DNA from: Misgurnus anguillicaudatus
Taxonomy: Eukaryota > Chordata > Actinopteri > Cypriniformes > Cobitidae
Assembly: GCF_027580225.2 (NCBI RefSeq)
Contig: NC_073354.2
Coordinates: 12,938,501-13,002,500 of the forward strand
Reading direction: 5' to 3'
DNA: 64,000 bases
Positions 17,275 through 17,990 of this stretch are shown here, one piece after another. A program made the position numbers and the translations under genes. The notes below the pieces were generated by a model. It saw only the letters and a program-made list of their open reading frames with translations, did no database searches and had not been told where the DNA came from. The number at the start of each line of letters is the position of its first letter. Position 1 is the first letter of the stretch.

Positions 17275-17429
17275 TCATGCTGCCCTCGATGGTGTTGCAT
17301 AAGTCGACAGTGCAGCCATACCAGCGTGGGTTCTACTGCTCGGACGACAGTATCCGCTACACCTATAAAAACAGCACTGTGCCGTCTTCTGTGCTGACAG
17401 CCGTGGGCCTGCTCCTGCCCATTGCCAGC
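17275..17429 (+). CDS. plpp3: plpp3 alternative exon 2a (mutually exclusive with 2b)
   Basis: A 155-bp exon with acceptor TTTTTTGCGTAG and donor GTAAGT, entering in phase 1 and leaving in phase 0. After the split codon it encodes 51 residues beginning MLPSMVLHKSTVQPYQRGFY and ending LLLPIAS. It aligns block for block with exon 2b (P-Y-x-R-G-F-Y-C-S-D-x-S-I then Y-x-Y-K-N). It is also like the alternative exon 2 of mammalian PLPP1 (family knowledge: a PYPFQRGFFC-type segment and an ending near LPISS). It would encode the outer half of membrane segment 1, extracellular loop 1 and most of segment 2. It adds an N-glycosylation sequon (KNSTV) that 2b lacks. Expression is not shown, but intact frame, both splice sites and family-specific residues argue for a real exon. 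Confidence 0.87.
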
Positions 17430-17760
17430 GTAAGTGCCCCAAACAGGGGCCTCAGTAAGGGGACATGGGGCCAGGCGAGCGGGGCCTTCGCATGGGAAAT
17501 TACGTCTTCTGAGAGAGTTTTTATAGAGATATTTCATACCCGACACGTTTATAGCCGCGATAAAGCGGAGACTGCTTTTAAATTACAGTGCCTTATGCCA
17601 GTCGAAGGCTGACGTTAGCTAAGTGTAGTAGTTTACTCTCTCAGAAACCAAAAACCATGTCGCCCCCCTCCCGTGCCTGGTATTACCCATAATCCTCGGC
17701 TGCCGTGTGCTGTGCTGTGCTATGCTGCTACCTGCGTGTGTCTTTCTGTGACCGACCTAA

Positions 17761-17822
17761 TCTCTCTCTCTCTTTTTCTCTCTCTCTCTCTCTCTCTATT
17801 TTGTGTGTGTGTGTGTGTGTGT
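17761..17822 (+). promoter_or_regulatory. (CT)n(GT)n tract before exon 2b
   Basis: A CT-rich microsatellite followed by about nine GT units ends 10 bases before the exon 2b acceptor. It therefore acts as the polypyrimidine tract of that exon and is likely length-polymorphic. CU-rich and GU-rich RNA tracts are known binding sites of PTB and CELF-type splicing regulators; such a role here is inference. Confidence 0.6.
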
Positions 17823-17832
17823 CTTGCTGTAG

Positions 17833-17990
17833 CTACCCTGCCTTTCCTGATAATTGAAACTAGCACAATCAAGCCGTACCATCGCGGGTTTTACTGCAGC
17901 GACCAGTCCATCCAGTACCCGTATAAAAACGGGGACACCATAAGCGATGCTGTGCTCTCAACCGCTGGCATTCTAATTGCCATCCTATCT
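17833..17990 (+). CDS. plpp3: plpp3 exon 2b (standard exon 2)
   Basis: A 158-bp exon, acceptor CTTGCTGTAG and donor GTAAGT, phase 1 in and phase 0 out. It encodes TLPFLIIETSTIKPYHRGFY, then CSDQSIQYPYKNGDTISDAV, then LSTAGILIAILS, after a split Ala codon. This is nearly identical to mammalian PLPP3 in this region. It covers the end of membrane segment 1, extracellular loop 1 and the start of segment 2. It follows exon 2a after a 403-bp intron. Confidence 0.96.

What the first reader, a model, noticed from the sequence alone, without database searches (positions are those of the whole stretch)
17275..17990. Tandem homologous exons 2a and 2b of plpp3: a mutually exclusive loop swap
Two adjacent exons 403 bp apart both encode the same protein segment with the shared core P-Y-x-R-G-F-Y-C-S-D-x-S-I. 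Both have good splice sites and identical phases (1 in, 0 out). Exon 2b is the known PLPP3 exon. Exon 2a is more like the alternative exon of mammalian PLPP1 (family knowledge). An alternative exon 2 is not part of the commonly described mammalian PLPP3, so this fish gene may keep an ancestral LPP1/LPP3 isoform pair that mammalian PLPP3 lost. The swapped segment is extracellular loop 1 and the adjoining membrane segments.
Basis: partly seen in the sequence, partly recalled or inferred. Interest (0 to 1): 0.78.

Follow-up and report, generated by a model that had tools for sequence, protein, structure and literature searches.

The report
Ancient swappable exon in fish plpp3
This loach gene for a lipid-signal-degrading enzyme carries two interchangeable versions of the same protein piece; the second version also turns up in many other fish, the coelacanth and amphibians and in the sister gene PLPP1, but not in the reptile, bird and mammal PLPP3 proteins examined.

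Summary
Observation confirmed. The window is loach (Misgurnus anguillicaudatus) plpp3: its joined exons equal the annotated PLPP3 isoform X2 at 266 of 266 residues. Exons 2a (17275-17429) and 2b (17833-17990) are homologous (26 of 50 residues), have GT-AG sites, enter in phase 1 and leave in phase 0. Joined singly to exons 1 and 3 they stay open; both or neither gives an early stop. Exon 2a is in 101 of 101 teleost or unnamed proteins of one search, and in 2 of 2 coelacanth and 9 of 9 amphibian PLPP3 rows of another; 21 of 21 named amniote rows there have 2b only. Loach plpp1 carries the same pair in the same order and phases. A tree groups PLPP1-2a with PLPP3-2a (99/97), but independent duplication is not rejected (AU p 0.17). 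Best reading: a duplication older than the PLPP1/PLPP3 split, kept as frame-enforced alternative exons, later lost from amniote PLPP3 and the loach's plpp3-like gene. PLPP1's alternative splicing is known; nine paper searches listed no description of the PLPP3 pair. Mutual exclusion is inferred from frame; no junction reads were available, and exon 3 has an unexplained GG acceptor here.

The parts
17275..17429 (+). plpp3 exon 2a (alternative, PLPP1-2a-like): V-MLPSMVLHKSTVQPYQRGFYCSDDSIRYTYKNSTVPSSVLTAVGLLLPIAS
   Evidence: splice sites and phase; identical in Misgurnus anguillicaudatus PLPP3 isoform X2
17833..17990 (+). plpp3 exon 2b (the exon found in human PLPP3): A-TLPFLIIETSTIKPYHRGFYCSDQSIQYPYKNGDTISDAVLSTAGILIAILS
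17430..17832 (+). 403-nt intron between 2a and 2b
17645..17830 (+). 186-nt AG-free zone directly upstream of the exon 2b acceptor, with CU and UG repeats; the longest AG-free run on the + strand of the window
   Evidence: 0 of 5000 dinucleotide shuffles of the intron reach it; part of it is simple repeat, which shuffling breaks up. Not shared by loach plpp1 exon 2b (58)
17757..17761 (+). only yUnAy branch-point candidate in that zone (CTAAT, A at 17760, 73 nt before exon 2b, 331 nt after the exon 2a donor)
   Evidence: consensus match only
19762..20042 (+). plpp3 exon 3 (shared; its acceptor reads GG, not AG)
   Evidence: the plpp3-like gene on C26/C2 has AG at the same boundary
20554..20611 (+). 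plpp3 exon 4 (shared)
34350..34526 (+). plpp3 exon 5 (shared)
44191..44319 (+). plpp3 exon 6, coding part with stop TAG

Best explanation
The plpp3 gene carries an ancient pair of tandem homologous exons (2a, 2b) that encode alternative versions of the end of membrane segment 1, extracellular loop 1 and the start of membrane segment 2 (topology from family knowledge). One of the two is spliced between exon 1 and exon 3, giving two full-length PLPP3 enzymes with the same catalytic part. The reading frame enforces the choice: including both or neither puts a stop codon four or five codons after the junction, so such transcripts would be destroyed by nonsense-mediated decay (inferred). The pair most likely arose once, before PLPP1 and PLPP3 separated, was kept in PLPP1 of fish, birds and mammals and in PLPP3 of fish, coelacanth and amphibians, and lost its 2a member in amniote PLPP3 and in the loach's plpp3-like gene (inferred). 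By analogy with LPP1 and LPP1a the swapped loop probably tunes which lipid phosphates are preferred or where the enzyme sits, not whether it is active (inferred).
For: Exons 1-2a-3 and 1-2b-3 are open; 1-2a-2b-3 reads LPCLS then stop, and 1-3 reads DCDW then stop. Exon 2a is in 101 of 101 proteins returned at E<=0.001 (112 candidates), teleost wherever named. Of the 197 proteins listed by three searches, 132 are PLPP3-2a only, 15 hold 2a and 2b, 29 2b only, 7 PLPP1, 14 fragments without exon 2 (the list was cut at 120 of 339). Unnamed contigs of at most 2833 bases encode exon 1 (whole or part), 2a and 3-6 without a break (P0015, P0041, P0047, P0155); the gene spans about 45 kb in loach, so these look like spliced RNA, or a retrocopy. 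Ten of 11 coelacanth and amphibian rows score highest on the 2a profile, the eleventh (P0142) holds both exons; 21 of 21 named amniote rows score highest on 2b. Loach plpp1 on C12: 2a 155 nt, 2b 152 nt, same order, phase 1 in and 0 out, double inclusion runs into a stop. Tree: PLPP1-2a + PLPP3-2a against all 2b and PLPP2, 98/95 and 99/97. 2a is about as conserved as 2b between loach and Triplophysa, Danionella and Pangasianodon: 48/50 and 48/51, 47/50 and 47/51, 43/50 and 43/51. LPP3 and LPP1a are reported more efficient on S1P than LPP1 and LPP2 (PMC7564803, passages).
Against: No RNA reads were available, so exclusive use is not shown. The acceptor of exon 3, needed by both forms, reads GG in this assembly. 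Independent duplication is not rejected (AU p 0.285; 0.168 and 0.139), and support for PLPP3-2a as one group is only 94/75 and 78/68. 2a changes faster than 2b against Coregonus (35/50, 44/51), Takifugu (34/50, 40/51) and Xenopus (26/50, 39/51). Some database models hold both exons (15 of 197), probably through gene prediction or genomic contigs. The long AG-free zone before 2b is not shared by loach plpp1. Sharks, lamprey, gar and lancelet were not sampled. The functional statement is analogy: by the same review LPP3, presumably the 2b form, already acts on S1P, so 2a cannot simply add that activity.
Confidence: 0.8

Rival explanations
1. PLPP1 and PLPP3 each duplicated exon 2 independently and the copies converged; the pairs are not homologous as pairs.
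For: AU tests do not reject grouping PLPP3-2a with PLPP3-2b (p 0.285; 0.168) or PLPP1-2a with PLPP1-2b (p 0.139); the segment has only 53 columns.
Against: Best trees group 2a across genes with 98/95 and 99/97; same order and phases in loach plpp1 and plpp3 and the same order in mammal and bird PLPP1 models; most 2a rows of both genes have S-T where 2b rows have D-T or E-T.
Confidence: 0.12
2. Exon 2a is a poorly used or decaying relic: annotated by prediction and sequence similarity, with little or no protein made from it.
For: Many database entries are computer predictions; 2a changes faster than 2b in the more distant comparisons; it is missing from the amniote rows and from the loach plpp3-like gene.
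Against: 98% identity between loach and zebrafish over the 60 scored residues; open frame in the full-length rows; contigs that look like spliced RNA; kept in both plpp3 and plpp3-like rows of Archocentrus and Fundulus.
Confidence: 0.06
3. Exons 2a and 2b are separate cassette exons used together, lengthening the loop.
For: 15 of 197 listed proteins contain both, for example P0001-P0006 and P0142.
Against: Direct splicing of 2a to 2b shifts the frame and stops after five residues; the fused models read through extra residues that differ between species.
Confidence: 0.02

Closest known systems
PLPP1 (LPP1 / LPP1a; PAP2a isoforms) alternative exon 2
   Same: Same gene family, same exon position, order and phases; loach plpp1 carries the pair too. 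2a of PLPP3 groups with 2a of PLPP1. [quoted passage not shown]
   Different: Here the pair sits in PLPP3; the amniote PLPP3 rows seen have no 2a. The intron between the exons is 403 nt here and 4509 nt in loach plpp1. That LPP1a is the 2a form is recalled, from no call.
Mutually exclusive tandem duplicated exons of vertebrates (PMC9741552, 2022; PMC5740500, 2017)
   Same: Adjacent homologous exons of like length, not divisible by three, double inclusion frameshifts; a passage of PMC5740500 lists frame shift leading to NMD as one way such exons are controlled; passages of PMC9741552 say that more than 90% of human events have orthologues in bony fish.
   Different: These catalogues start from human genes; this exon was not seen in mammalian PLPP3, so they could miss it. 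The main texts of PMC9741552, PMC5740500 and PMC4465641 hold no 'PLPP' or 'PPAP2'; supplements could not be read.
Exons with distant branch points and long AG exclusion zones (PMC1431707, 2006)
   Same: AG-free zone of 186 nt before exon 2b with a CU-rich tract; passages of the paper link zones of 100 nt or more to alternative splicing.
   Different: The only branch-point match is at -73 and lies 331 nt from the 2a donor, so the steric block that the paper mentions for some exon pairs is not supported here.

Membership tests
PLPP3 orthologue | coding sequence matches PLPP3 better than PLPP1 and PLPP2 | tested here: met
   470.9 bits to PDB chain 25qp (PLPP3) against 268 (PLPP1) and 246.4 (PLPP2), query exons 2b-6; identical over 266 residues to annotated loach PLPP3
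PLPP3 orthologue | PAP2 domain | tested here: met
   PF01569 90 bits, cut-off 27.2, in P0008
Mutually exclusive tandem homologous exons | adjacent exons of clear homology and like length with equal phases and sound splice sites | tested here: met
   155 and 158 nt, 26/50 identical, phase 1 to 0, GT-AG sites of 2a and 2b themselves; the shared exon 3 acceptor is GG
Mutually exclusive tandem homologous exons | joint inclusion or joint skipping is non-productive | tested here: met
   early stop codons in 1-2a-2b-3 and 1-3
Mutually exclusive tandem homologous exons | junction reads for each exon bridging the other, none productive between them | not testable with these tools
   no read data; only unnamed contigs that look like spliced RNA with 2a
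PLPP1-type exon 2a | groups with PLPP1 alternative exon to the exclusion of 2b exons | tested here: met
   support 98/95 and 99/97
PLPP1-type exon 2a | single origin: independent duplication rejected | tested here: inconclusive
   AU p 0.285, 0.168 and 0.139
Sterically enforced exon pair (branch point close to upstream donor) | branch point too near the 2a donor to splice | tested here: not met
   intron 403 nt, only candidate branch point 331 nt from the donor (consensus scan, branch point not mapped)

The most novel reading that the evidence does not exclude
PLPP1 and PLPP3 inherited from one early vertebrate gene a splicing switch in extracellular loop 1 that sets substrate preference or membrane location of these lipid phosphatases; non-amniote vertebrates still run the switch in both genes, and amniotes gave up the PLPP3 half, leaving a natural experiment in lysophospholipid and S1P signalling.
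Probability: 0.35. Interest if true: 0.62.

Novelty: new member of a known kind. Interest (0 to 1): 0.45.

Why it matters
Knockout of LPP3 is reported to be embryonically lethal (PMC3418163, passage), and the gene is usually treated as making one protein (recalled). Fish and amphibians, zebrafish and Xenopus laevis among them, have PLPP3 entries with another loop 1, so knockdowns, rescue constructs and probes designed on one isoform may miss the other. The pair also offers a clean test of what loop 1 does, since only this segment is swapped, and it would date an exon duplication to before the PLPP1/PLPP3 split if the tree holds.

Tried and rejected
Structure prediction of a 2a protein (P0008) and a 2b protein (P0151) gave mean pLDDT 47.9 and 46.4, too poor to place the loop; no fold search was run on them. 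The idea that the N-S-T sequon of loach 2a marks a conserved glycan was dropped: of 140 rows matching a loose pattern among 197 proteins, 50 have N before S-T and 90 do not. Steric exclusion by a close branch point was not supported. Rfam reached threshold nowhere in the window. Pfam found nothing in seven of the ten ORFs of 110 aa or more; the other three overlap exons 2a and 2b and were not scanned. NCBIfam gave no match to three PLPP3 proteins. Paper searches for a described PLPP3 exon pair listed no paper on it by title and abstract start, with at most 20 listed per search; passages of seven papers were read, none as a whole. Absence from print is therefore not shown. The Yamanaka 2008 LPP1a paper was seen only in reference lists.

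The loach plpp3-like gene (C26, with a near copy on C2) was searched for 2a between its exon 1 and exon 2b, introns of about 4.7 and 4.2 kb: at E<=1 only 2b itself and chance-level matches (E 0.5-0.9) appeared. For plpp1-like on C5 and plpp2 on C23 only about 8 kb upstream of exon 2 was searched, without 2a; their first exons were not located. A further PLPP-like gene on C19 was left out of the trees.

Full report
What is there. The window belongs to a 1.12 Gb genome (G000), contig C18, positions 12938501-13002500. C18 is 40231163 bases long, the same length as the contig listed for P0008, 'phospholipid phosphatase 3 isoform X2 [Misgurnus anguillicaudatus]', and the joined window exons 2a-3-4-5-6 equal P0008 at 266 of 266 positions, while Paramisgurnus (P0009) differs at 4. 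So this is the loach plpp3 gene. Exon 1 lies just outside the window, at C18:12937683-12937818, ends with G in phase 1 and is followed by gtaagt. Exon 2a is 17275-17429, exon 2b 17833-17990, exon 3 19762-20042, exon 4 20554-20611, exon 5 34350-34526, coding exon 6 44191-44319.

The pair. Exons 2a and 2b share 26 of 50 aligned residues with the core P-Y-x-R-G-F-Y-C-S-D-x-S-I. Both have AG acceptors and a gtaagt donor, and both go from phase 1 to phase 0. Translating the four possible joins: 1-2a-3 and 1-2b-3 are open; 1-2a-2b-3 stops after five residues of exon 2b; 1-3 stops after four. Frame therefore makes the two exons alternatives for a productive message. That other messages are decayed is inferred. 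One thing does not fit: the intron before exon 3, which both forms need, ends in GG instead of AG. The plpp3-like gene has AG at the same boundary, so the exon start is right; whether the site is a GT-GG intron, a polymorphism or an error is open.

Splicing signals. The exon 2b acceptor is preceded by 186 AG-free bases; 0 of 5000 dinucleotide-preserving shuffles of the 403-nt intron had such a stretch, and it is the longest AG-free run on the + strand of the window (counted there as 188). Counted the same way, the zones are 45 before 2a, 58 before exon 4, 37 before exon 5 and 38 before exon 6. Part of the zone is CU and UG repeats, which shuffling breaks up, so the test overstates the case, and loach plpp1 has no such zone (33 before 2a, 58 before 2b). 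The single yUnAy match in the zone is at -73, 331 nt from the 2a donor, which speaks against steric exclusion. Passages of PMC1431707 tie long AG-free zones to alternative splicing; a role of CU- or UG-binding regulators here is a guess.

Conservation in fish. A search scored on the first 60 residues of the 2a form returned 101 proteins at E<=0.001 among 112 candidates. All 101 contain a 2a segment and those with an organism name are teleosts; many are called 'phospholipid phosphatase 3 isoform X2'. They include zebrafish (98% over the 60 residues), characins, catfish, salmonids, eels, tarpon, herrings, cod and percomorphs, and also 'PLPP3-like' proteins of cichlids, killifish and smelt, a second fish copy that keeps its own 2a. 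Against loach, 2a and 2b are about equally conserved in Triplophysa, Danionella and Pangasianodon, but 2a is less conserved than 2b in Coregonus, Takifugu and Xenopus.

RNA evidence, indirect. P0015, P0041, P0047 and P0155 come from unnamed contigs of at most 2833 bases yet encode about 300 residues running through exon 1 (part or whole), 2a and 3-6. The gene spans about 45 kb in loach (its span in those unnamed animals is not known), so these are most likely spliced RNA, or a retrocopy. P0103 and P0105, short unnamed contigs with 2a and 2b in one open stretch joined by intron-like residues, look like genomic copies of the tandem arrangement in other fish.

Outside fish. To favour a tetrapod 2a if it exists I searched with a probe made of recalled human PLPP3 exon 1 and a tarpon 2a (60 proteins at E<=0.01 among 139 candidates). 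Of these, 2 coelacanth and 9 amphibian rows (frogs and a newt) have 2a, one Xenopus model holding both exons; 21 named amniote rows and 8 unnamed rows have 2b only; 5 are teleosts with 2a, 1 is an unnamed newt-like row with 2a, and 14 are fragments without exon 2. The profiles used for sorting were built partly from the same rows; the best profile leads by 34-60 bits in the named coelacanth, amphibian and amniote rows that hold one exon 2. The searches cover annotated or predicted proteins, so an unannotated amniote exon cannot be excluded. The profile search listed 120 of 339 matches, from 7996 scored candidates, and its tail was not seen; its 120 hold no PLPP3 named from outside teleosts.

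The same pair in plpp1 of the same genome. Protein P0107 (an elephant seal PLPP1 model holding both exons) found in G000 a plpp1 gene on C12 with a 2a-type exon (query 38-91, 57%) and a 2b-type exon (query 105-159, 64%) upstream of exon 3. Read in detail: 2a 155 nt, 2b 152 nt, 4509 nt apart, 2a first, phase 1 in and 0 out, donors gtaagt, and double inclusion runs into a stop. Mammal and bird PLPP1 models have the same order. The plpp3-like gene on C26 (and its near copy on C2) has exon 1 and 2b but no 2a between them, so loach seems to have lost 2a there although percomorph plpp3-like genes keep it.

Tree. From the proteins in hand I chose 56 exon-2 segments (53 columns kept). PLPP1-2a and PLPP3-2a rows are split from the 2b and PLPP2 rows with support 98/95 and, after adding five loach paralogue segments and dropping five rows, 99/97. 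PLPP3-2a alone has 94/75 and 78/68; PLPP3-2b is not one group in either tree, since the Takifugu row falls next to PLPP1-2b. Forcing PLPP3-2a with PLPP3-2b costs 5.5 or 6.8 log units (AU p 0.285, 0.168), forcing PLPP1-2a with PLPP1-2b 16.4 (p 0.139): not rejected. I weigh the tree together with equal order and phase and favour one origin before the PLPP1/PLPP3 split.

Function. The Pfam PAP2 match (residues 131-275 of P0008) lies in the shared exons, so the swap changes only the end of membrane segment 1, loop 1 and the start of segment 2 (topology from family knowledge). A review (PMC7564803, passages) says that LPP3 and LPP1a seem more efficient on S1P than LPP1 and LPP2, and that LPP3 and LPP1a, but not LPP1 or LPP2, convert phospho-FTY720. 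That LPP1a is the 2a form is recalled. This suggests that loop 1 can tune substrate choice, but because LPP3 is already active on S1P, the effect of 2a in PLPP3 cannot be predicted. Solved structures exist for PLPP1, PLPP2 and PLPP3; the five distinct sequences found carry no 2a-type segment in the alignments printed. My own models were too poor to use.

Verdict. A real, conserved, protein-coding alternative exon; a known kind of arrangement, known in the sister gene, not found described for PLPP3 in the searches made, and not seen in amniote PLPP3. Interesting mainly for the evolution of the family and for users of fish and frog models.

Noticed in passing
window 19760-19761 (3' end of the intron before plpp3 exon 3): The intron ends in GG instead of AG (ctatcctgg|ATTGTG); the nearest AGs are 47 bases upstream and 23 downstream and neither keeps an open frame, yet the protein annotated on a contig of the same length runs straight across the junction, and the plpp3-like gene on C26/C2 has AG at the same boundary. 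A GT-GG intron, a polymorphism or an assembly error.
   Followed up: partly
G000 C26 about 1.20-1.29 Mb and C2 about 47.99-48.06 Mb (L025-L028): Two contigs carry a nearly identical plpp3-like gene and, about 83 kb (C26) or 61 kb (C2) further on, a second related gene, in the same order; a recent duplication or unmerged haplotypes.
   Followed up: no
L031 8413-8571 (G000 C19:9526412-9526570): A further, more divergent PLPP-like gene with one exon 2 (ASIPFFACELKAVPPYVRGFFCGDPSITYP...), 55% to 2b of a plpp3-like protein; identity not worked out.
   Followed up: no
database proteins P0088-P0101 (cichlids, killifish, smelt, silverside and others): A second fish gene, mostly named plpp3-like, keeps its own 2a, while the loach plpp3-like gene shows none between exons 1 and 2b.
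   Followed up: partly
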